From positions 14,707,452 through 14,771,451 of the forward strand of contig NC_049985.1 in NCBI RefSeq assembly GCF_000003815.2: 64,000 nt of DNA, written 5' to 3'. Positions within the stretch are counted from its first letter, which is position 1. The number at the start of each line of letters is the position of its first letter. Positions 9,631 to 57,000 of this stretch are shown here, in pieces. Under the pieces are notes generated by a model. That model did no database searches and was not told the DNA's origin. It worked only from the letters and a program-made list of their open reading frames with translations. The stretch is from Branchiostoma floridae. Lineage: Eukaryota > Chordata > Leptocardii > Amphioxiformes > Branchiostomatidae. The position numbers and the translations under genes were made by a program.

Positions 9631-12219
9631 TCACTCTAGAAGGGAAGCCATATCCGACTCCGTATGGGTGTTATTCCCTTGGGAGGAGTTCACAGCTGAT
9701 ATCCGCGCCATGTCAATATACGCTTGCTGATTGGCCCATGGGTTGTTAGGCGTGGTCGGGCTGCCTGGATACGGCGGTGGCGCTTCTGTTGGAAAGAAAT
9801 GCATGAAAGATTTTTTTTATTCGTCGTGCATGTGTATGCATACAGTATATTTGAGTAAGAAAAACAAAAACAAAAAATCAAACGAATCACCAGCCAATGT
9901 CTCAAAGGAACACATCCTGCACTAACAAAAGCGAGTTAGGCTTTTTACATGAACGAAAGAAATTGAAAGATGGCTCCATCAAGAACTTATCTTAGAAAGT
10001 TATAATCATGTTTCTCGGTGTTAGGACGGTGCATGTACGTACATGCACTCCTTTTAATGAACTCTACATAAACTTTGAGGAGTTAAACTACTGGTATCTT
10101 GCAGTAGAGTGATATAGATGTTTGCAAGTTTATCGTGGACAAACCTTGCATGTAGCCTTGCGGTGTAGGGGAGTAGGGCGGCGGTGCCATGGGCTGGGCG
10201 GGAGGCATGGGAGGTGGCACCGACAGCCTTCCTGCCAGCCTCTCCAGGAGTACCAAGGGGCTGGAGAATTCTATCAAGTCAATCTGACGGGAGAGGAAAG
10301 ATGATACAGAGAACGTTAAAAGTCGATATAACCTGTCAACTTTCAATCGTAAATAATCTGTTACATCGAGTCTGTTAACATACGTTTGACTATTTGTTCC
10401 ACTATTGAACTGCTGATGAAGAAACAGACGAGTTATCCAAGCTGCCTTACCTTTCCTTGAAGGTCCACCCGCACGTCGTTACATCCGCAGAAGAACTTGC
10501 AACCTGAACCGCTAGAGGGCGCTTGTGGACGGCCCGCGATGAGCAGTGACGCGCCAGAACACCTGAACGTTGCGTACATTCCCTCTTCGCCCAGCACGTC
10601 GCGGTAGAACTGCTTAACCAGGGCGTTTAGACTGATCTGTGATCAGAAAAAACATGCATTGAAAAGGTGTTTGAGAAAACAAAAACAAAAGAAAGTTAAA
10701 ACAGACGACAGAAGAAACACTGAGTTTGAAATGAAATATTTAATGCCGTTTTCACTGTGAACTTCAGCCATTCAGCTTCCATTTTGATTTTTTGTTCTTA
10801 CCTTCATGTCAAACTTCTTCCCCTCCAACATCTTTTCGTAGGCGAGCTCGAAGCCTTGGTCCAGCTGTCTCCTGACGTATGGGTGACGTGTGTTCACCAT
10901 CAGCATAAAACTCGCTGTGCACAAAAACAACAACATTTTAGAGTCCAGATCTTTGCAACGTCTGTTTTTTTTTCAGGAAACCTTCACAGACGTATGTATA
11001 TCTCAGTGCTACTTACTTTTGTAATATATCATCAACATAAAACTCATTGTATAAAGTTAACGCAAAATCAACAACATATGAGAGTCCTTCAAATTTCGTT
11101 TTTGATTTCATCAACGAGAATTCATCAACGCACGTATGTCCCCGTGCCACTTCATGATATATTTCTCTTGAAGATACAATACTGTACAGTGTATATGAGA
11201 TTTCGTACTCGTAAATGTGCTTTTAGAGCACAATTTCACAAGTTTTCTAGTTACTTTGAAGGTTTTAATGTTGGTTGAATAAATTCTTTTGATAGTTATA
11301 AAGCTAACATTTATATGAAATAGGATTTATATCACGATTTATATCACACTTATCAATGTGTCAAGAAGATATCTTACCTTTCAGATGTTTGGTAACCCTG
11401 ACGATGACATAGTGGTTGGTACTGCTCCTGCAGGCGTCTGCTTGCATCCACAGCGGAGCGCCGACTAGCCGTTCACGTAGGGACTGCAGTGCCTCCACGG
11501 ACTCCACGCGGATTTTCCTGAGGTAAACAGGTGGCATCAGGAGATTCTTAGCAAGGGACAAACAAAAACGTAGCCTTCATATTTCTACATTCTACATAGG
11601 GTATAATTTTTTCTTCCGAGATTGTTTCCTGTTTTCTATCAAGGTTAGTTCGAGTCGTGAAAGAAACATAAAAGTGCGCCAAATAGCAGTTACTCGTACT
11701 CAAGCAACTCAACTGGATATTATTTTGGAAACGGTCAGACGTTTCAGGTTTCCACTACCTTTCGTCAGTTATTACCTGGATGTCTATCCTTCGTCGACGT
11801 TAACATAAAAGTGACTCATTCTAAGGTAAACAAAAAGAGCACTCAAAATCATTATATGACAACACCGTGGAAGAGCAAGTATAGTACGTAGAGATCCATC
11901 AAATAATGGGATGGCATACAGGTAACTGTAGAGAATTTGCATACAGTCAAGACTGTAAAAGTGACCAACAAAATAGTTTAAAAATAATGTTCTTTGAAAC
12001 GCACCTTCCCAGCCTGTTGGCGAACACAGGCATGTCCACACAGACGTTCGCCATCTGCGGATCGTGCACGATCTTCCTGGTCCCCGGATCGATCACGAAG
12101 GTGCTCCTGGGAAGGTTCCTGAGGAAGTTCTGCATGAGGGCTGCTCCCACCATCATGTCGTCATCCCGCCGGGCGGCGGCCTGGGGTGGGAGGGGGGCGC
12201 CGTACACTACTGCGGACAT
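9631..12219 (-). CDS. Uncharacterised 315-aa protein with two PPPY motifs
   Basis: Six coding exons on the minus strand: 12219-12005, 11517-11378, 10914-10802, 10636-10451, 10283-10145, 9785-9631. All boundaries are GT-AG, the phases agree, and the total is 948 nt. I do not recognise the family. Residues 1-220 look globular: LPRSTFVIDPGTRKIVHD, then VEALQSLRERLVGAPLW, SFMLMVNTRHPYVRRQL and a Cys-rich KFFCGCNDVRVDL. The last ~100 residues are Pro-rich and carry two PPPY motifs (MAPPPYSPT and EAPPPYPGS), the usual ligands of WW domains in Nedd4-type ubiquitin ligases and adaptors. There is no signal peptide or membrane segment, so it is probably cytosolic. An acceptor (tttttcag) about 28 nt upstream of the ATG shows a spliced 5' leader. 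Exons are GC-rich relative to flanks, which supports real coding. Confidence 0.8.
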
Positions 12220-42012: not shown

Positions 42013-45000
42013 TTATTCAAAGTCAAATGTGATACCAGTCCCACTAAACTTCTCCTTATACCAGTCATCAAAGGCTTTACTCTGCTCAGGTGTAAACATG
42101 TTCTTCCAGTCTCCTATGATACCTGTAAGGGGAGCAAAAGATATCCAAAATGAAGCAATGATCTCTACATATATTCTAGTATTAATTGACTGTTTTGCAT
42201 TTCAAATTTTGCAACTGCAAATAATTGGTTTATGTATTTTTTTTTATTGATCATGTTAGATAAACAATATTTTTGGTCAGATTAGAATGTACGTAGATAC
42301 AGTGTATAATATCTCATTCTATACTTGATAGCTTGCTAATTGAGAAAGTACAATTACTGTAAACACCAATTAAGACACACCTTTCCGGGCTATTGCCTGT
42401 CTCTCAGGGATCTTGGAATTGTCCATGTCTGCCTTCATGTTGTTGAAAGTACTGGCCTCTGCGATGCCTTTTATGATCGATTCATCCAGATCAACCTCCA
42501 GAAATGCCACAATGGCCTTCACAGCAGTAAGCAGATCCTACATAAAGATGCTCATGAATAGTTGATAGAGATATGATCAGATATAAATTCTGCAAGTCCA
42601 TAGTCTCTTTCAATATTCTGTTTAATTGGTTTATTATGTACAGTCTTTTTTTAACGTTTGGTGCAGTAACTAAGTTGTGAAAAAAGTGTTAATAGTAATA
42701 GTAATAGACATTTGTAGATAGCCGGTTGATTGTTTGCGTGCCCACATTTTTATGGGGTAATTAGTGATGTTTTGTGTACTCTACCTTCTTCATGTCCTCA
42801 TACTTGAGGAAGAGGAAGTGGGGGTCGTCTTGCATCTTCCACCAGCCCAAGACGTGGTCTTCAAATGGTCCATATGCCACTGTATCAGTGTATGTCAACA
42901 TGTATACAAATCATTATGTACTTGTAAGGCATGCACAGAAACACACACAAAGTATGTGTACTACTCAACTGATTCAGAAGGGTTCGGTAAAGTAAGGAGA
43001 AATCATTTCATAATGCTTGCACAACTAAATGTTAATTCCTAAATGCAACAATTTCTCAAAAGATACAATTATGGCATTATATATTATAATTAGTAAAGAA
43101 ATCTTTTCTGTACAACTTTATTACCTTTTCCGTTGGTAAACTGATGAGCAAACACTTCCCATGGCACTTCGTCTGTTACACCCCTCAACCTTAGAATTTT
43201 CTTGCCAAAATGGAAGTGTGACACAGCTGTGTCCTTTGGGTTCCTCATTGGCACCAGGATTTTTACCTGTTTGAGTTAAAAATATTCATACAAAGATATT
43301 ATTTGCAGTCGTGATCTGCCAGAAGTCTAGATCTGTTATTGAGTCGAACTACAGTACGCGTGGTATATGTTATGTGACAGTTTGGTAAAAGGAGTTGTCA
43401 CCTACTGTTACCAGGGCTCGAAATACTAGGTGCATGTGCACCCAGGTGCACCCAAAATTGTAGCTGTGCACCCATTTATTTTCTGTGGGTGCAGATATTA
43501 AAGATATCAAAGAATACTACTATATATCATATTCTTGACATCAAAGTGTTAGAAAGATTATAGAAATGTCTGTCATCGTGAAATATCTGTGGTAGCTTGT
43601 AACTATATTTTATTACTAGGTTATTACTTAAATTTAAGTGCTGCACCCAAAAATTTTTTGGTGCACCCAATTTTTTAAGCTGGGTGCACCAGTGCACCTA
43701 ATCCAGTTTCCAGTTACGACCGCCTGAGGGGGTGGAGGAAATCAAGCAGCAAATTCTTTGTCTCAATTCTAAAATACGTATTGCCGGGAAACCCTTTTTC
43801 TCTTCATCTTTTGACACNNNNNNNNNNNNNNNNNNNNNNNNNNNNNNNNNNNNNNNNNNNNNNNNNNNNNNNNNNNNNNNNNNNNNNNNNNNNNNNNNNN
43901 NNNNNNNNNNNNNNNNNNNNNNNNNNNNNNNNNNNNNNNNNNNNNNNNNNTACTGGAAATGGTCTTTAAAACATCCATCTCCAGATTTACGTGTTTGTAT
44001 GCCCATTTGTAGGGACAGAACTTGGTGTCAGAAGAAGAAGATTAACAAATATTTGTATATCTTTTTTATGAAAGAAACCAATTTGTGTGAACCCTCATAT
44101 AAAATACAACTTTCCTGGGAAGAATATTTTGATATACCCATACCTTGGAAACAAGTGTACTGCCTACCCTACAAGCTCTCTATAGATACCCACACCAGAA
44201 TGTTTCAGTATAAATTGCTTTTTAAATTTTTAACTGTTAATAAAACATTGTTCACTTGGAAATTAATAAACTCTCCTAGGTGTAGCCTTTGCAATGAAGA
44301 AGAAGAGACGGTCATTCACCTGTTTTGGGACTGTAGAGTTGTTGCTAATTTCTGGTCCAAGGTGGATGAGTGGTTCTTCAATCTTACAAATATTCATTTG
44401 CATATTAATGTTTTCAATGTCATCTTTGGTGATTTAAGTGACCGTTGCCCAGCTCTGTCAAATCTTATTATCCTCTTAGCTAAGATTTATATTTTCAAGT
44501 ATCGACAACAGAAATTAGAATTATCTAGTTTTATTTCATTTGTGTCTTATGTCCATAAATTAGAATGCATCATTGCAAAAAGATTAGACAAAATGCCTAA
44601 ACACATCGGGAAGTGGGGTAAATTATATGTTGTATTGATTTAAGTTTCCTTTAGCCATTGTTTAATTTATTTTCCGGGGTCCTCATAATTTCTCATTAAT
44701 TTTTATGGTTCTTATTGTCTACTGGTTTTATGTATCAGTTTTGTTGTCATGCATGTGCGTCACGAATTTTGTTTGTTGTGCCATGATTTTGTTCTCCTTA
44801 TTTTGAAATGAATAAAAAGAAAGAACTTAAAAAAAAAAAAAAGAATACTACTATATATCATATTCTTGACATCAAAGTGTTAGAAAGATTATAGAAATGT
44901 CTGTCATCGTGAAATATCTGTGGTAGCTTGTAACTATATTTTATTACTAGGTTATTACTTAAATTTAAGTGCTGCACCCAAAAATTTTTTGGTGCACCCA

Positions 45001-48000
45001 ATTTTTTAAGCTGGGTGCACCAGTGCACCTAATCCCAAAAATGAATTTCGAGCACTGGTTACACAATATAAACTATCTTGCAATATTGCATTTTTTTTCC
45101 AAGTCAAGGCCACACTGATTTATTTTCATAATTCATTTCACATTTCTTAGCTATAGCAAAAACTCATAGCAGTCAAAATATTAACAAAGGGCTTGGAAGA
45201 CAACTTAGTAGGTCCCTGATAAGTTGTACATGCCACCAAGGTACCGCACGCTCGTACCCAGCGCCGTGAAGAAGCCATAGGTTTGAGATCGTGGGCTTAT
45301 TCACAATCCACCTCAAGCTGAATTGAATAAACTCTATGGAATTCACAGCTGTCGTTTTGTTTTGTTTTGTGTTTGTCTCAATGCCTTAGAAAATCGTAAG
45401 TTGTGAGCGCACGCCACTACGTGCGTTTCTACAGCCTGAGTATTTTTACAGTTACCGGGTCCAAAACTGGTCGCAAGTTTACTATTTAGGGTGTAAAATG
45501 TTGCCACAATAGTGGCACGTTACAACAAAGGGAGTTTTAGAATGTACCTGATTTGGTGGCGCTGTAAGGGCGTTAAGATTATCCCTCTACATTGCCAAGA
45601 GGGAGTTATGTCACGGAAGGGAGTTTTGCACGGCGGCGCGTTTGGCCTTCTCCACGGACGCTGGTAGATTTGGAATCAAGATGGCGCCCGCATATTAATG
45701 AGGCAGCCGGCGGCTAGCGAGTTAATGTATGCAAGAAGCCGACGGCTGCCCGAGCGCACCCGAGCGCTGGGGGAACCCGAGAAATAATGAGATGCAGCTC
45801 TCTGATACGTCACGGGCTTCCAGAAATAGCTCGGCGGAAACACCAGAGCGGTGAGCGGGGTATTTCACACTACCAAAACAAAAGGTCGGTATCTTTGTTG
45901 AATATGGCTGAGACCGTTTGGCGGGGAAAAGGTGGCAAAATGAAGAAATTTGCATCGATAAAAGCTTTTAGACCAAAGTCACGACGAGTTGGACATGGCA
46001 GCGTGCGGAGAAAACGTCGGAAAAGAGAGGAAAAACATGGATTCTGCGTGCCGAGCCTCCAGAGAGGGGAGGGTTCCATGCCCTCACAAGGACTGCTTGG
46101 GTAATGGCAAGTTTTACGTGAGCGGTGCGGGTCTGGACGTCCACTATCGTGCGAGGCATGGCAGCAAACCGGACGGAAACACCGAGAAGGCTGCAGAGAA
46201 AATGCTCCACCGGCTTTGTTTCGCCGAAATGAAAGAGAAACTCCTGGAAATCGAGGTATGTTTCTATAGTTTAACTTTGTACCATTTAAAAGAATTGTGA
46301 AGTATAATCGATTTGGGTAAAGTCGTTCCCCAAAGTGTGGAGTTTGGAAGGTACCTAAAGAATTTGCACAATTGTTATTTTGATCAGATAATACCCTCAC
46401 GGTAAATATGTGTTTCATATATGTGATTACAAATGTCCCACTGAATTTCCACCGTAGTTGTATTCAAACTACTGTTAATATTTTGCAGGTGTTTTGATTG
46501 AAGCTCGATGACGATTTCCTAGTAAACACTGGGAGAAAGAAATATTTAGGATAACAAATAATCTTGCCTATCAGTATGAATAGCATTCTGTTTACATTTT
46601 AGTCTCAAGTTTAAACTTCGAAGGGAAGATGTCATTTTTTCTGCACTTATTTCATTACTGATTGATGCATTTTGAATACAAGTCAAAGTTCTAAATCATA
46701 GATTCAATAGGTACTATATTATGTCATATGATGATGACATATTCAGGTTTGCTGTATTTAATGGGTGTAATATTTGATATCTGCTTTGCTTGTTGTTACA
46801 AACGGAAACTCTGGCACACGATAGATAGTACAGTTTACTTATGTTGTTTGTCACTTGTTTCTCTTCAGGCGAGTGAGCAAGCAGGTGAGGAGTATACTGT
46901 GACAAGCGTGGCACTAACTGCAAAAATCACAGCTACAAGACCAGAACAAGCTGCAAAAAAGGCAGGTATAATTCTTCATGCTGGAGGCTTCCTTCACTCC
47001 TTCTCCAGTGCGCAGCCACCGTACCCTGTCAGTGTCCAGGGGAAAAACAAGGAGGTACACTATGACCTCTGGTACATTTTAAAGGTGCAAGACAACATGA
47101 GGTTCCCCGCCATTTTTTGCAAACCTACCTATGTGAAAATGTCACTTGAAAAGCATCAGTCCCAGGATGCTACCGCCAACAATTCTACCTGCCTACCTAT
47201 CGGAGAAACAGACATTGAGGACCCTTTGGAGGAATGCCTCAACAAGGTGTTCAATCTGCAATCTTTCCGTCCAGGACAGAAAGATATCATCAATGCAATA
47301 CACACCGGGGAAAACACTTTTCTGGTTATGCCGACAGGGGGTGGGAAGACACTCTGCTTCACACTACCGGCCCTCCTAAGGAAAGGTGTAGCAGTGGTGA
47401 TCGTTCCCTTGCTTGCCCTTGGAACAGACATTCTGAGAAGATATGAAGAGAAAAGGATACCAGCAGTCTTTCTATCACATCTAACTGCAGAGGTGACCCT
47501 CAACACTGTCATCCATGACCTCAACAGCAACACTCCAAAAACAAAACTGCTCATAATAACACCAGAAAGTCTTGTCAACAAGCCAGTGGTGTGGGGCTGT
47601 GTGGTAGGACTGAAAGAAAGGGGTCTTCTGGAGATGGTGGTCGTGGATGAGGCCCACTGCATGGATCAAATGGGTCATGAGTTTCGGCCCACTTATCTAC
47701 AACTTTCCAAACTTGCAGAACTCAAAACACAGATCGTTGCTTGTACAGCCACAGCCACCCCAACAACAAAGCAGTTCATCATGACACACCTTCAGATGGG
47801 GGAATGCCGTACATTTCATAACTCGGTGGACAGAAGAAACATCCAGTATAGTGTAAGGTTAAAGGGAAAGACAAGGGAAGCTTGCCATGGGCAGGTGTGT
47901 GAAGTTGTGTTGGATCACAAGGAACAGTGTGGCATTGTCTATTGCCAGACAGTAAGTGATGTTAAGGACATACACTATCACCTGCAAGAAAATAGTATAA

Positions 48001-51000
48001 AAACAGTTAAATACCATGGCACAGGCACAGGACAGAATGAGCAGGAGGGGAGACAAAGTCTGTTGGACTGGCAAAGAGGCCTCAAGGATGTACTTGTAGC
48101 AACAAAAGCTGCAGGGGCAGGGATTGACAAACCGGATGTAAGGTTTGTACTTCACCTTGGATGTCCATCCTCTGTCCCAGATTACTTGCAGGAGTCAGGT
48201 CGTGCCGGGCGTGATGGAAGGCTGGCAAAAGCAATCCTGTTCTATAGCCCAAAAGACAAGGCTTTACATGTCACAAGGATAGGAGCCATAGAAGAGGAAA
48301 CATACAGAGCCGGAGCTGTCAGAAGACTCGCTGATGTTATCAACTTCTGTGAAACAGAACTGTGCCGAAGAAAGGTTTTGTTAGAGGCTTTTGGGGAAGA
48401 CACAACCTCATACAATTGCAACAAAACATGTGACAATTGCCTCAGTCTAACTGTGGCAAGAGAGGTTGTCCTGACCACAGAAGCTGCCAATATGGTGAGA
48501 TGCGTGTCTGCAATCCGGCATACTGTACCACAGCCCTCTTCATCTCTACTGGCTAGAGTATTCCTTGGACTGGGGACTGGGCAAGCGGTGAAAAAACAAA
48601 AGTTGGATGAACTACCCGAGTTTGGTCTGGGGAAAAACTCTGGTTTCAACTTGAAAATTTGCGAGAGATTTATACGCGCAATGACTAGAGCAGAGATTCT
48701 AGAAGAGGTGCTAGTGCCTAAGAGTACCACTCAAAAGTTTGCCTCTCTGCATATCCTCCCAGGGAGGATGGCAGAGTCCACTATTCGAAATGAAGTACAT
48801 GTTACGTTATTCATAAGGTGATTTTTTATGTATATATATGTATATATAGTCGTCCTATGTAAGCTACTGAGGGCTGGATGAGAGTTTATACATATATACA
48901 TGTAGGTCTGTCTTTTTCAAAGGGTATCAATCGTTCAATTGCTACGATTATTGCTTTTCATTGTAAACTTTTATGTGTATTAAAGTATATACACTATTGC
49001 CAGCAATCTGTACATAAATTATGACCAGTAGAAGCAAAATGTGTATAGATATCCTTTTTTTACATGCTTGTACAGTATAGCTACCTGACCTCTGAGCCTT
49101 TGTGTATTCTTGCCAAATAAACAAGAACTGAGTGTTGATATGAGAATTGTATGACATAATCTGCTGATTGCATGCATGTCAGCCTGCTGGAAGAATTTTA
49201 GGAAACTATAAGAACATGTAAATTGTCATGTAATCATTCTTTGACCGGTATATCATATTATTGTCTTTGCTTTATATAAATGCATTTCAATAATGTATGA
49301 CTTGTTACTTCCCACGAGAAGGGATTATTGTCTGTATATTTGTATATAAATGTTTTGTACATAAGTTTCCTACGTGCATCTTTCTGCTGAATTGACTTGT
49401 GAAGCTGTGAGCATGCTGATGATATAGTTTGTATAGACATCAAAATCGGACCTATTTCCAGTAATCTGAACAGCATAAAGGACCAGTAGAAGCAAAATGT
49501 ATATACACATTCTTTATTTACATGCTTGAAGAGTACAGCTACCTGACTTCTGAGCCTTTGTGTAAAGGTACATGTATTGTCAAATAAACAAGCAGAACTG
49601 AGTATGGCACATTTTGAGTTTCCTATGCATTCTTTTCATGATCTTCAACTATACAAAGGGCTTTAACGAGCCACTATTGAAACATGTAAAGTCCACAGTA
49701 GCATAGCCATGTGCAGAAGAATAAACCAGATTAGAAACCTAAATGCAAATGACACATCATATAAACAGTTGAGATGTGTTTTGTTCTTACACACCCTTTG
49801 CCTAGCAGTGGTCAAGGGAGGGGGGGAAACGTTTTATAGGGGGGATGCGAGCCCAACCGTACATACATTTATATCCCGCCTAGCAGGAAGGCGGTGCGAG
49901 GAGGGGGGCAATAGTTTTATAGGGGGGATGCGAGCCCTCTGCCAAACCGTACATACATTTATATCCCGCCTAGCAGGAAGGCGGTGCGAGGAGGGGGGCA
50001 ATAGTTTTATAGGGGGGATGCGAGCCCTCTCCCAAACCGTACATACATTTATATCCCGCCTAGCAGGAAGGCGGTGCGAGGAGGGGGGCAATAGTTTTAT
50101 AGGGGGGATGCGAGCCCTCTCCCAAACTGTACATACATTTATATCCCGCCTAGCAGGAAGGCGGTGCGAGGAGGGGGGCAATAGTTTTATAGGGGGGATG
50201 CGAGCCCTCTGCCAAACCGTACATACATTTATATCCCGCCTAGCAGGAAGGCGGTGCGAGGAGGGGGGCAATAGTTTTATTGGGGGGATGCCAGCCCTCT
50301 CCCAAACCGTACATACATTTATATCCCGCCTAGCAGGAAGGCGGTGGAGGAGGGGGGCAGAAGTTTGACAAAGTACTACATAACATTACAATGTAGGCAC
50401 ATTTTCCCTGAAAACAGAGGGTACCCTTCGTCTGTTTGGAAATATGTCAAACATTTTTCTTTTGAAGTTTGCCTTAACCTTTTCGCACCCCTTACTGTAG
50501 ACATCACATCGATCATTCGGGACAAACTTCTGACTGTCTGTGATGGGATAGACTTTGGCCTTGCGACGCTCAGGGTCGTACTTGAAAAACTGCTCCTTTA
50601 AACAGAAAAGACAGACAAAGATCTGATCTAGAAGCGGTGCTGGCTCACTGTGGCGTTTTGTGTTGTGGATGTCAAAACCACCTTTGGACTTGTAACAGGC
50701 TCTTGCGCTACCAACAATCTGTAGGTTTACATTCAGTTTCTGTAGGGTCTTCAGTGTGGTTTGTCCAGAACAGTACTGTTTTAAAGGTTTCACAATGTGT
50801 GTTTCCACAAACTCATCACATGCAATGTTATGTCCTTCTCTACCCTCTACACTGACTGAACAGTTCTGCTGTACCATTTTCCTGATGGCAATTGGCCATG
50901 CAGCTGTCATGTTGACCACGTGTGCGAGTGCCTCGATCCAGTAGTTCTTCTTTTTGGACTGAGAGAATATGGGCAGTAGAACCATCCAAACTGCTTCCCG

Positions 51001-54000
51001 ACCTTGTCCGTCCCCATTCTTAATTGAAGTGTTGTATAGTCTCATGAGTGGTCCAAACAGTGAAACACCTTGTATTCTGTATCGGAATGCGACATCGTCT
51101 TCACTGCATGAGGCTATCCAATCCTTGAATCTAGACAATAGAAGCGGCCCTTTATCTTGCCCACAACTCGCCAGCTCTTGTTCAGTAGGGAAAAGTTCTG
51201 AGCCTGAGAACTCGAGCACTGCAGAGAGTCCATAACCAAAGGCGACATCCCTGTTGGCTTCTCTTATCAACTGGAGGTTGTTGTCTTTGAACTTGTCTTT
51301 CCCATACGTTTCTTGTTTTACCTTTTTCCTTTTAAGAACATCTGTGATAATATGATAAAGACCACCCGGACCCTGAGATTTTGCAAAACACTCCTCGGCA
51401 TATCCAGATGCATGCATATCACCTGGCATTTCTGATGTCCAGCCAAAAGCTACTTCATCACTGAGTCTGCAGTGCAAATGGTTCTTATTAGTCAGCCCAT
51501 CTCCCACTGTTACATTAGGTGCATTCTTTCTGTGGAAGGTGTACACTTCATCCTGTACCTCTACTTGCTCCATTTGAGTAATGAGATCATCTAGGGCATT
51601 CTGTGGTTCTTTCTCGACTTCATTAACAAACTGCATGTACTGATTACAATCTTCTTCTGGTGATGGTAGCAACTTTTCCATGATGTCCAGTGTGTCATTC
51701 TGACCCATTTTTGTAGCAATGTTTAGTGGCGAGGGGAAATGAAGGAAGGTATGACCATCTACAGACACTGCCTCTGTTTCTAGTAAACACTTTATCATGG
51801 CATTATCGTGTCTTAACACTGCAAGACAAAGGGGAGTTGCCCCACACCCTTCTTTGGAGTCTGCATTGACTCCTGCAGTTAACAGGTATTTCAACAGATC
51901 TACATTCCCCCCCTCCACAACAGCATGTACAATACTACGACCTAGGTGATCTCTAATCTCAGACCAACTATCTTTAGAGTCTGATACATACCTACTGAAC
52001 TGCTCTAGATCTGCTACATTTCCTGCCCTATTTGCTGTTGCCAGCCTATCCTGCATATCTGACACTACTTTTCTCATCTTCTCGTCCTCCTCCTTCCATC
52101 TTCTTCTCAGTGAACCCAGATGTCTGGAGCTTGCTGGTCCTTCGTCACCATTATCCTGTTGATCTTCTATGTCAACAGGAACCTCCTCTCTTCCTTCATC
52201 CCACGGATCATGTGAAATGCTGTTCAGAATGGCAACTTGATCGACTCGATGCTGTTCTATACTTTGATGGAATTCAAACCTCTTCCTGGCCAATGAAATG
52301 TCAAACTGAATGCTGTTCTCATCAAAAGGAAGGTACTTTGTGTCACTCCTGTTAATGGGTATGTTGAACTCTTTAGCAAACTCCTCATTTATACAGGCTG
52401 TACCTGTTAGTGTGGCTTCGTTTTCCGTTGATAATGGAAGTACGAGAATGTCTGTTTTTTTAGAGTTTGGGGGATCTGCGGGTCTTTGTAGGATTGTGTA
52501 GGTGTGAGAGTTCTTGAGGTCTTGTTTGGACAACCAAGATTTCTGTTGTGCTGTAGTTTTGTGAGTCTGGTCTTGTGTGTCTTTGGGGAGTATGTTTAGG
52601 GCTGTGTCAAGCAGGTCAAGGTAGTAGTCGTCCTGAGCTCTTTCCCATACCTGTGCCAAATCAGGGTGGGACTGGAGGAAGACATCGTCCTCACTCAGGT
52701 CTTCTACAGGTTTCTGGGGCATCTCTGCGGTCTCCTTTGTTGTAAAAAGTTCCTCGATGCCTTCCAGGTCTGGTTTGATGGCCATACGCACCGTGAAGTT
52801 CCACATCTGTGCCCTGCCTTTCATGACTCTAACGTGTCGGACGGCTCGGAGGATATTGATGTTGTCGTAACCAAACATCACAGGGCCACCATCACCAAAC
52901 TTGTCATCAATAACTGTCTGAAAGCTATCCAGCCTTTTGCCCATGAATCCCATTAACGTGTCCCAACTTTCAGACAGGCCGAGGTGTTGTAAGAGGGACA
53001 CAAATTGCTTGCCAGCTCCATATGACACAGCAACCAGGCCAAACAATATGGTAACGTCATTGTTGGCCCTCGAACTGCGTAAGTCCAACAGTCCACACAA
53101 AGCATGTACTGCACTCTTCATCTTGAAAGCATTTGTCTTCAGCTTGTTTCTTGACTTTTCCTCAGTCACAACCAGTGTCCACAAAATGGAGTGTATGAGG
53201 GGGCATTCATCAGGGAGGGCCGTTGCAATCTGGCTGAAGAAGGTTACAGGAACATCATCTATGGCTCTTTCTCTTAAGCCCACACCGACCATCTTTTCAA
53301 ACGCTTTCATCTCTTCCGAGAGTTTCACTTGCTGTTGCTTGGACAGTTGAGTCCCACTTTTCTCGTGTTCTCTGAGACTGTCAATATGCTCCCTGTATAA
53401 CTGGACAAGGGTTGAAACAAGCTTGTTTCTTTTGGCCCACAAGCCCTCAAACTGTGATGCCACATGATGTTCTGTACCAAACTTGGATAGATGTGCCCAG
53501 CTTTCCTCCAAGTCTTTATCTACTTTGCGAATCAATGTTTGGATGTTTTCTATCTGAGCTGTGGTGCCTGTGGCTAACTGCAGACTGTCCAATGTTGTGG
53601 GCTTCCACCTTAATCCTGATAGAACCTTGCGCTTTGCTTTATAGTTCACAGTAAAGACTGACTTTGCTATTCTAGTTATAGTAATACCAGATACCGTGGA
53701 AGTATCTGCCGATGCTTCCTCTTCCTCCTCTTTGTTGGAACAATGCTTAGCCATTTGTTCGCAGTGACTTTGAAGACCTGTTTGCACATCTTCCATCAAA
53801 ACACTGTCCTCCTCTGCACCTTCCTCGAGCCTACTCAACAGGTAACCCCGTACAAGAGAACGCACCTTTTCCTGCTGACTCCAGGCACTCCCGGTGCTTG
53901 CCCGCTTTGAGGAGGGCTGAGGGAGGGCCTTAGACTTTGGGGTCATGAGCCGCTTTTTGTCTTTCCTGGGTGTGTTAGTTGGAGTCGTTGTGGATGGTGA

Positions 54001-57000
54001 CTGTTCCGGTAGAAACCTGGCCAGTGGTTTGTCATCATCCGAAGATGTCTCAATGTCATCTAGAAGACACCTGGCCAGGGGTCTGTCATCATCAGATGAC
54101 TCACCGTCCGCCATTTCTGCAAGCAAAAACTTTTGGTTACTGTGTGTAAATATTAAATGCTGACAAGTTGGACTGATACAAACTTAATATAACATCAAAT
54201 ACTAACTTACTTTTGCCTAGCTATGTTGGTCGTGATGGGCTCCTTACTTGAGTTAACAAAGGCTAAGAACTGAAATGTTTTATTCCTGACACTTAAGTAA
54301 AAAGAATAATCTATATACTTGCATACAATATCAGTACCTTTACATAGGTTACCATTTAAACCCAATGGGTTCAGGTCAAAAACTGTTTACATAATAGGTT
54401 AATTGACTCCACTAATGGATGGGGCTGTTTCTGCCAATTAAAATGGTTTTATCCTTCTACAATTTACTGATGAAGAGTATTGAAAATATTTGTTCTATAA
54501 AATCTAGTTTCATGATGGGTTATATACAACACCCCAGTCAACACACACCCATTTCTGAAAGCAAAAACTTTTGGTTACTGTCTGTACATGTTGACAAGTT
54601 GGGCTGAAACAAACTTTAGATACAATATCAAATACTAACTTACTTTCTGCAATAAAAAAAATTAGGTTACTCCTAATGCTGACAAACATGATCACCACGT
54701 GTACAAGCTTATCACACAATACTTTGTAAACTTACTTAATTTTACCCTGATAGATTGTCTATCAGGCAACAAAACCAGCAAAGACATCCTAGAAACAGTG
54801 TTTCAAAAATGGAACTTGTTTGACAGAAATAGGATTTGCTTGGAATTCAAAAAACCAAAAGAAAGTAAGATATACGTTGGAAAGCATTGTCTCACCTGGC
54901 TATATAAAATCTTCTCTTCCTCTTTGTCGTCAAGTCAGGACAGTAATATCTCAGGACATGCCTAACAAAGGAAACGTTTCATTAGGGTGATGCAAAAACA
55001 GCCTTTAGACTACTAGTACTCATGCATTCATAAAAACCCATGTAGCTCTAATGGAAATGCTACTTACTAGACCGTGTAGGTAAAAGAATACATGCATACA
55101 AATTTGGTACCAAAATATGAAATTTAGGAGATGATTCATAACTAATTATTCATTTCTTAATATTTTCTTATTGACAATTCAGAGGAAGCCACCAGATAAA
55201 AAAAATTCTACTGCTACAAAACAACAGAATATGGCACAAGTAATTTGTTTTAAAAAATCTAGTTAACTTACTTTTAACATGCTAATTGTTTTATGTCTGA
55301 CTCTTTAGTTGTGTAAGTAAAGGTACATTGGAATTTGTAACATACAGCATCATATTGAAATGTATTCTAGAGCTAGGGAACAAAATGGAAGTTGTTCGAA
55401 TTTTAGGCACCCAACTATGAGGCGTTGCCAAAAACACCCCCCCCCGCTCCACGTGAAATGACTGCCAACTATCCAAGTCGCTACACTAATAATCAGCACA
55501 GTTGCGGAGAAAATAGCAATCGCCGTCTAATCTATGTATATCAGAGGGTACATGAATGAAATATGAAGAACGGGAGCGGCGTTATGTCTGCAAAAATACG
55601 CGATGAACTTTGAGCAAAATTAACAACATCGTAAACAACATGGCGGCCATCTTTTCCAAAAAATAACATCCAATTTTAGCCTGCCGCCACAACCTACTCA
55701 GATGCACATAACCCAAAGTTTCGTAGCGACGGTAATATATGGTCAACATAGTGTGGCTACGAAGTGATATAAAGGCGTATATTTTTCATTTAGAGTAAAA
55801 CCAACGCGATGAAACGCGTACATGTAAAACTTGCATAAATAATTTTCTACACTTTCGACGTCGCTACACTACTAAGCAGCAAAGTTACGGAGAAAATAGC
55901 AATTGTCGCCTCAACTATGTATATCAGAGGGCAGATAAATAAAATATGAAGTACGGGATGGGCGTTATGCTTGTAAAAATACGCGATGAACTTTGAGCAA
56001 AATTAACGATAGATCGTGAACGACATGGCGGCCATCTTTTCCAAAAAATAACATCCAATTTTAGCCTGCCGCCACAACCTACTCAGATGCACATAACCCA
56101 AAGTTTCGTAGCGACGGTAATATATGGTCAACATAGTGTGGCTACAAAGTGATATAAAGGCGTATATTTTTCATTTAGAGTAAAACCAATGCGATGAAAA
56201 TCGTACATGTAAAGTTTGCATAAATTAAGACAAATTTTCTCCACTTTTCAAATCGACATCGTGAACCATCCAATCTTATTCAGGCACGTCTTTACCTTGT
56301 TCCAAAGGCTATAGGTACCAAAGATAGCACATGTGAGTTTTTGTAGCACTCAGCTATCGATAACATGTGAAAAACTTACCTCGAAAATCGGGGACTCTCG
56401 TGCAAAAATGGCCACTCTCGTCGGACAAGTTCTGGCAGCGTCCTCCCGCGCCAGATCACGTTCCCAGGACACTTAGCTCCTCTCAGCATGATTCGCCCCA
56501 GGAATGCGTTCTCTGTCCCAGGACTGTCTTTGAGAAGAATCCCAGATGCCAGTAGCCACCATGCGGCCGTATAATGTATTGCAAAAAGACTCACACGCAT
56601 ATTCAGTGGAATAACACGATTTAATAGGACGCTGTGGAGGAGCGTGAAGGTACCGACTTTCCCCATATACTCAATATGATAAAGAGTCTATTTCACATTG
56701 ATTTGGCAGAAAAGTACAATGAAATTCTTAAGATAAGAGATCCAATGAATTGAATTGGTATTGCCCAGGTATGTAAGGTATGTTATATGTACATGTACCT
56801 TATTCTGAGGCTTGGATATCCCCTCTGGTGCCAACTCAAAAGGCAGGTGTGTAGCCACAATGCGAGGAGAGGGCATGTCTGCGAGCATGACGTAGCATGG
56901 TTGTGTAGCTGTCGGTGTCTTCATCTCCAAAGGCCCTGGTGCAATCAGACTGTCTGTACTGCTTTCTGTTTTTCCTGCAGCACGCAGGATCTTACCTACA

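What the first reader, a model, noticed from the sequence alone, without database searches (positions are those of the whole stretch)
45238..56655. Complete 11.4-kb DNA transposon carrying a RecQ-like helicase and a DUF6589/ankyrin protein
Seen: an 11,400-bp insertion with a perfect 9-bp TSD (AAGGTACCG), 15/19-matching inverted termini starting CACGCTC, and two intact convergent genes of 737 and 1,242 codons. Known: RecQ-like helicases are rare in DNA transposons; from memory, the AcademH lineage encodes a helicase plus a transposase and makes 9-10-bp TSDs. Inference: this is an autonomous AcademH-like element, young and possibly active, and may be the first ankyrin-bearing form.
Basis: partly seen in the sequence, partly recalled or inferred. 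Interest (0 to 1): 0.95.

Follow-up and report, generated by a model that had tools for sequence, protein, structure and literature searches.

The report
Amphioxus DNA transposon carrying RecQ helicase
This is a whole, recently mobile jumping gene in the Florida amphioxus genome that carries its own DNA-unwinding enzyme and an unusual ankyrin-containing protein that probably moves it; it appears to belong to a class of mobile DNA already described.

Summary
The element is 45247-56646 (11,400 bp), between perfect 9-bp duplications AAGGTACCG, with 15/19 inverted ends and two intact convergent genes: a RecQ helicase (737 aa) and a DUF6589 protein with ankyrin repeats (1,242 aa). In the window alone the ends could be chance at about 1 in 60; the genome removes that doubt. 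The left end matches 40 scored places, window included. Of 31 copies examined, window included, 23 have perfect, mutually different 9-bp duplications at the predicted ends; 2 with both ends lack one; 6 have no complete right end found. A second full-length copy on C1 is 99.2% identical with both ORFs open. A second subfamily and ~600-bp deleted copies share the ends. Selection is purifying. The gene pair recurs in three other amphioxus assemblies. RecQ helicase plus 9-bp TSD fits AcademH, published in 2020; that paper was not readable here and homology to Academ transposases is untested. The distinctive feature is ankyrin repeats inside the DUF6589 region. A good new member of a known kind, less surprising than first scored.

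The parts
45238..45246 (.). left target-site duplication AAGGTACCG
45247..56646 (.). complete 11,400-bp DNA transposon
   Evidence: both ends coincide with copy boundaries elsewhere in the genome
45247..45265 (+). left terminal inverted repeat CACGCTCGTACCCAGCGCC
   Evidence: 15/19 with the right end; the only match in the window at up to 3 mismatches
45995..46255 (+). helicase exon 1, with a C2H2-like motif at about 46079-46159 (by eye, no Pfam hit)
   Evidence: matches P0005 residues 1-87; no Pfam hit there in P0005
46869..48821 (+). helicase exon 2: DEAD, Helicase_C, RecQ zinc-binding, RQC
49855..50366 (.). 90-bp minisatellite, 5.7 copies, between the two convergent genes
50386..54114 (-). 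DUF6589/ankyrin protein, 1,242 aa, probable DDE-type transposase
   Evidence: transposase role inferred
52339..52482 (-). upstream DUF6589 piece (profile 57-104; weak alone, E 0.028, 13.6 bits against a cut-off of 27)
51664..51957 (-). ankyrin repeats lying between the two DUF6589 pieces
50716..51045 (-). downstream DUF6589 piece (profile 278-389)
52864..52866 (-). candidate first catalytic Asp (YDNIN)
   Evidence: kept in P0001, P0003, P0004; P0002 does not cover it; role inferred
51499..51501 (-). candidate second catalytic Asp (GDGLT)
   Evidence: kept in all 4 homologues; role inferred
50932..50934 (-). candidate catalytic Glu (NYWIE)
   Evidence: kept in P0001-P0003; P0004 does not cover it; role inferred
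55477..56225 (.). 385-bp tandem duplication near the right end
56628..56646 (-). right terminal inverted repeat ending GAGCGTG
   Evidence: the 11 best right-end matches in the genome, window included, run to this last base, some weaker ones stop short
56647..56655 (.). right target-site duplication AAGGTACCG

Best explanation
An autonomous, recently mobile TIR DNA transposon of the AcademH type in Branchiostoma floridae. Shown: exact ends, 9-bp duplications at many independent sites, two full-length copies with both genes open, and selection on both genes. Inferred: the DUF6589/ankyrin protein is a DDE-type transposase that binds the short inverted ends, cuts them and joins them to target DNA with a 9-bp stagger; the RecQ-type helicase unwinds DNA at the ends or target during strand transfer or repair; the ankyrin repeats bind a protein partner (the helicase, another transposase subunit or a host factor). 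The ~600-bp copies are internal-deletion derivatives moved in trans.
For: Left end: 40 matches among 40 scored of 89 candidates, 12 (window included) at 99-100% over all 154 bases from base 1. Right end: 42 matches, 11 (window included) at 98-100% over all 150 bases. Of 31 copies examined, window included, 23 have perfect 9-bp TSDs, all different. Sister copy on C1, 11,477 bp, 99.23% identical over 11,376 aligned sites, both ORFs open. Against the second subfamily, dN/dS is 0.096 (helicase, 655 codons, L015), 0.095 (helicase, L019) and 0.087 (transposase, 845 codons, L015). recQ_fam model above its cut-off. Held papers: AcademH makes 9 or 10-bp TSDs (PMC10045372, passages); RecQ helicase in Academ (PMC3627910, one passage); fungal Academ copies carry recQ_fam domains (PMC6416283, passages).
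Against: L013 and L025 have both ends but no matching 9-bp TSD; for L003, L009, L012, L020, L021 and L022 no complete right end was found. The second-subfamily copy L015 has its transposase in two frames with about 127 residues unmatched, so it is not intact. The first 266 transposase codons show dN/dS 0.42 against L015. No structural support for a DDE fold: both models failed (mean pLDDT 36.6 and 38.5). Homology of the DUF6589 protein to known Academ transposases is untested. The upstream DUF6589 match is weak alone. No paper in the held library uses the term DUF6589.
Confidence: 0.85

Rival explanations
1. A helicase-bearing member of another superfamily, such as KolobokH, rather than Academ.
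For: KolobokH also encodes a RecQ helicase, and a red-alga Kolobok has one on the complementary strand (PMC9587614, passages).
Against: 23 of 31 copies examined have perfect 9-bp TSDs, all different, with no fixed TTAA; that Kolobok duplicates TTAA is recalled. [quoted passage not shown]
Confidence: 0.06
2. A previously unnamed superfamily that independently acquired a RecQ helicase, with 9-bp TSDs by coincidence.
For: Protein searches reached only Branchiostoma homologues of the DUF6589 protein; Academ membership of DUF6589 was not shown here.
Against: Helicase type and TSD length both match what held papers say of Academ and AcademH; the search tool needs shared 5-residue words, so its silence says little.
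Confidence: 0.08
3. Two adjacent host genes with chance flanking repeats.
For: TSD plus inverted ends in this window alone are only moderately improbable.
Against: Ends recur at many places with new TSDs, and a second full copy lies on another chromosome-size contig.
Confidence: 0.01

Closest known systems
AcademH (Kojima 2020, Mob DNA 11:15; title and citing passages seen, paper not held)
   Same: helicase-encoding DNA transposon of animals and fungi (title); 9-bp TSD within the 9 or 10 bp reported; RecQ-type helicase as reported for Academ
   Different: ankyrin repeats inside the DUF6589 region; whether published AcademH elements have them is unknown to me
AcademX
   Same: the sister lineage of the same superfamily
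   Different: reported 3 or 4-bp TSDs and a nuclease; here 9-bp TSDs and no nuclease domain among the Pfam hits of the three ORFs scanned
KolobokH
   Same: RecQ helicase beside a transposase
   Different: [quoted passage not shown] TTAA duplication recalled; here 9-bp variable TSDs

Membership tests
AcademH | 9 or 10-bp target-site duplication | tested here: met
   perfect 9-bp TSD in 23 of 31 copies examined, 2 with both ends lack it, 6 unpaired; feature taken
AcademH | encodes a RecQ-type helicase | tested here: met
AcademH | encodes an Academ-type DDD/E transposase | tested here: inconclusive
   DUF6589 match, candidate D, D, E; both structure models failed; no Academ reference protein available
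AcademH | termini and proteins match Repbase AcademH consensus sequences | not testable with these tools
   Repbase not available; AcademH paper not held
AcademX | 3 or 4-bp TSD and a nuclease | tested here: not met
   9-bp TSDs; no nuclease domain among the Pfam hits of the ORFs scanned
KolobokH | TTAA target-site duplication (recalled) | tested here: not met
   TSDs are 9 bp and all different

The most novel reading that the evidence does not exclude
An animal AcademH branch whose transposase core is split by an ankyrin-repeat domain, kept across amphioxus species, that couples the transposase to its RecQ helicase or to a host factor: a domain architecture not yet reported for eukaryotic transposases.
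Probability: 0.4. Interest if true: 0.6.

Novelty: new member of a known kind. Interest (0 to 1): 0.45.

Why it matters
How helicase-carrying transposons use the helicase is, to my knowledge, open. This family has near-identical long copies, short derivatives and exact ends in a tractable chordate, so the roles of the helicase, of the ankyrin insert and of the 9-bp stagger could be tested directly.

Tried and rejected
Structure prediction of the DUF6589 protein (ORF residues 160-1265, then the C-terminal 425 residues, 5-sequence alignments) gave low-confidence models; no fold search was run on them. Two protein searches with the DUF6589 protein found the same 4 Branchiostoma proteins; one with the helicase found 9 Branchiostoma proteins and 14 others, bacterial where named. 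Scans of viral and prokaryote contigs found no relative. Rfam found nothing at gathering scores.

Literature searches of the held library: AcademH 7 papers; DUF6589 none; DUF6589 with helicase none; AcademX 1; Academ with DNA transposon, helicase and transposase 7; Academ with Branchiostoma and transposon 4; Academ with RecQ helicase and TSD 2; Academ with DDE transposase 2 (listing only); ankyrin with Academ 2, one seen only in the listing and one in passages where the two words are unrelated; ankyrin with RecQ, DNA transposon and transposase 1, listing only. In PMC12210899 and PMC8290104 AcademH was seen only in the reference list. PMC10799480 passages name AcademH and KolobokH as sources of DEAD and Helicase_C domains. 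PMC4455052 passages give 265 B. floridae families in Repbase by 2015, so this family may already be named there.

The host-gene reading was rejected on copy number and TSDs. My notebook first gave 17 short copies (entry 3); one search corrected this to 16 among the 30 left-end loci. A genome-wide search with the DUF6589 protein or its Pfam family did not complete, so the copy count of that gene is unknown. The left end of the C6 relative was not found in the 1.2 kb fetched; its right end was. Ten of the 40 left-end places were not fetched.

Full report
Check of the observation. The window shows AAGGTACCG at 45238-45246 and again at 56647-56655, enclosing 11,400 bp that begin CACGCTC and end GAGCGTG; the first 19 bases match the reverse complement of the last 19 at 15 positions. 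A 9-bp repeat flanking a 7-bp exact inverted repeat at 0.5-20 kb occurs 3 times in the window against a mean of 0.75 in 20 shuffles, so that alone is weak. With at least 15/19 in the inverted ends only this pair remains, and 60 simulated windows gave one in total.

Genes. The helicase has two exons (45995-46255, 46869-48821; 737 aa) with DEAD, Helicase_C, RecQ zinc-binding and RQC matches. It scores 327 bits against the recQ_fam model (cut-off 220), and the best solved-structure relatives by sequence are BLM and RecQ. The opposing gene (50386-54114, minus strand, 1,242 aa) matches DUF6589 and ankyrin repeats. DUF6589 profile positions 57-104 match before the ankyrin block (E 0.028 for that piece alone, below the cut-off) and positions 278-389 match after it (E 1.3e-13), so the ankyrin repeats sit inside the DUF6589 region. 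Candidate catalytic residues D417 (YDNIN), D872 (GDGLT) and E1061 (NYWIE) are kept in the amphioxus homologues that cover them; the ankyrin block lies between the first two. Their catalytic role is my inference; both structure models were too poor to use.

Copies in the genome. The window lies at G000:C7:14707452-14771451 of a 513-Mb assembly. That it is Branchiostoma floridae rests on P0005, a helicase named by NCBI as B. floridae and differing from the window's at 4 of 737 residues; its contig length (35,335,272) equals that of C1 here, where the sister copy lies. The first 154 bp of the element match 40 places (89 candidates, 40 scored), 12 of them, window included, at 99-100% over the full length. 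I examined 30 of these 40 places plus one found by its right end (L050). Perfect 9-bp TSDs: the window; 16 short copies of 537-609 bp; L008 (11,477 bp), L019 (9,358 bp), L024 (1,713 bp) and L030 (1,642 bp); L015 (10,305 bp) and L050 (585 bp). That is 23 of 31, all different. L013 and L025 have both ends but no matching 9 bp. For L003, L009, L012, L020, L021 and L022 I found no complete right end; L009, L012 and L021 contain runs of N, and L021 matches the right end only up to base 11377. L015 and L019 also hold runs of N. The last 150 bp give 42 matches (52 candidates, 40 scored), 11 at 98-100% over the full length, window included; some weaker ones stop short of the end.

Age and selection. 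L008 is 99.23% identical to the window element over 11,376 aligned sites, with 125 gap columns, and both its ORFs are open. For this pair helicase dN/dS is 0.13 (13 changes) and transposase 0.35 (26 changes). Against the second subfamily the helicase gives 0.096 (L015) and 0.095 (L019), at dS about 2, near saturation; the transposase gives 0.087 over 845 codons (dS 1.15) but 0.42 over the first 266 codons (dS 0.18). So most of both genes has been kept under purifying selection. The L015 transposase itself is not intact: its two parts lie in different frames with about 127 residues unmatched. A genome search with the helicase gives 64 matching pieces (135 candidates, 61 scored): four places open from residue 83 to the end (C1, C7, C12, C2), a partly matched open one on C6, pieces interrupted by stops on C1, C6, C8, C10, C11, C140 and elsewhere, and a few weak matches of 26-32% identity that may be host helicases. 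In 14 of the 16 short copies the match is to about the first 375-411 and the last 161-213 bp; L026 and L028 matched the left part only. Seven belong to the window's subfamily and nine to the more distant ones. This is what internal-deletion derivatives look like.

Other amphioxus. Relatives of both genes share a contig length in B. floridae x B. japonicum (LOC144870649 and LOC144870650), B. lanceolatum (24.0-Mb contig) and B. belcheri (Bbelb_320200 and Bbelb_320190); other helicase hits (P0006, P0008, P0010, P0012) and P0002 had no partner in these lists. Contig identity is judged from length and identifiers only; I did not see that DNA.

Comparison with the known. Held papers say that AcademH makes 9 or 10-bp TSDs while AcademX makes 3 or 4-bp ones, and relate this to helicase versus nuclease (PMC10045372, passages); that a RecQ helicase is known in Academ (PMC3627910, one passage); and that fungal Academ copies carry recQ_fam domains and are often annotated as host genes (PMC6416283, passages). 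The AcademH paper itself was not held. The element works like AcademH and meets the two features I could test; the third, an Academ-type transposase, is inconclusive. KolobokH also has a RecQ helicase (PMC9587614, passages) but does not fit the TSDs (TTAA recalled).

Judgement. The score is lower because helicase-bearing Academ elements in animals are published, and the ankyrin feature, real here, may already be on record in sources I could not open.

Noticed in passing
P0001 and P0002: DUF6589/ankyrin proteins from B. floridae x B. japonicum and B. lanceolatum are 96.5% identical over 821 aa, far closer than either is to the window's (83.1 and 82.1%): orthology, recent activity or horizontal transfer.
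   Followed up: no
L015 (C12 copy), transposase N-terminal part: dS to the window copy is 0.18 in the first 266 codons but 1.15 in the 845 codons of the rest: perhaps a mosaic of two subfamilies by recombination.
   Followed up: partly
P0002: This transposon protein is named BARD1 in the database, probably because of its ankyrin repeats.
   Followed up: no
window 43951-44643: Reverse-transcriptase zinc-binding domain (zf-RVT), probably the end of a LINE, just upstream of the insertion.
   Followed up: no
window 43818-43950: Run of 133 N in the window.
   Followed up: no
L013: A short copy interrupted by about 1.6 kb of other sequence after base 115, with bases 111-115 matched on both sides: perhaps a nested insertion.
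   Followed up: no
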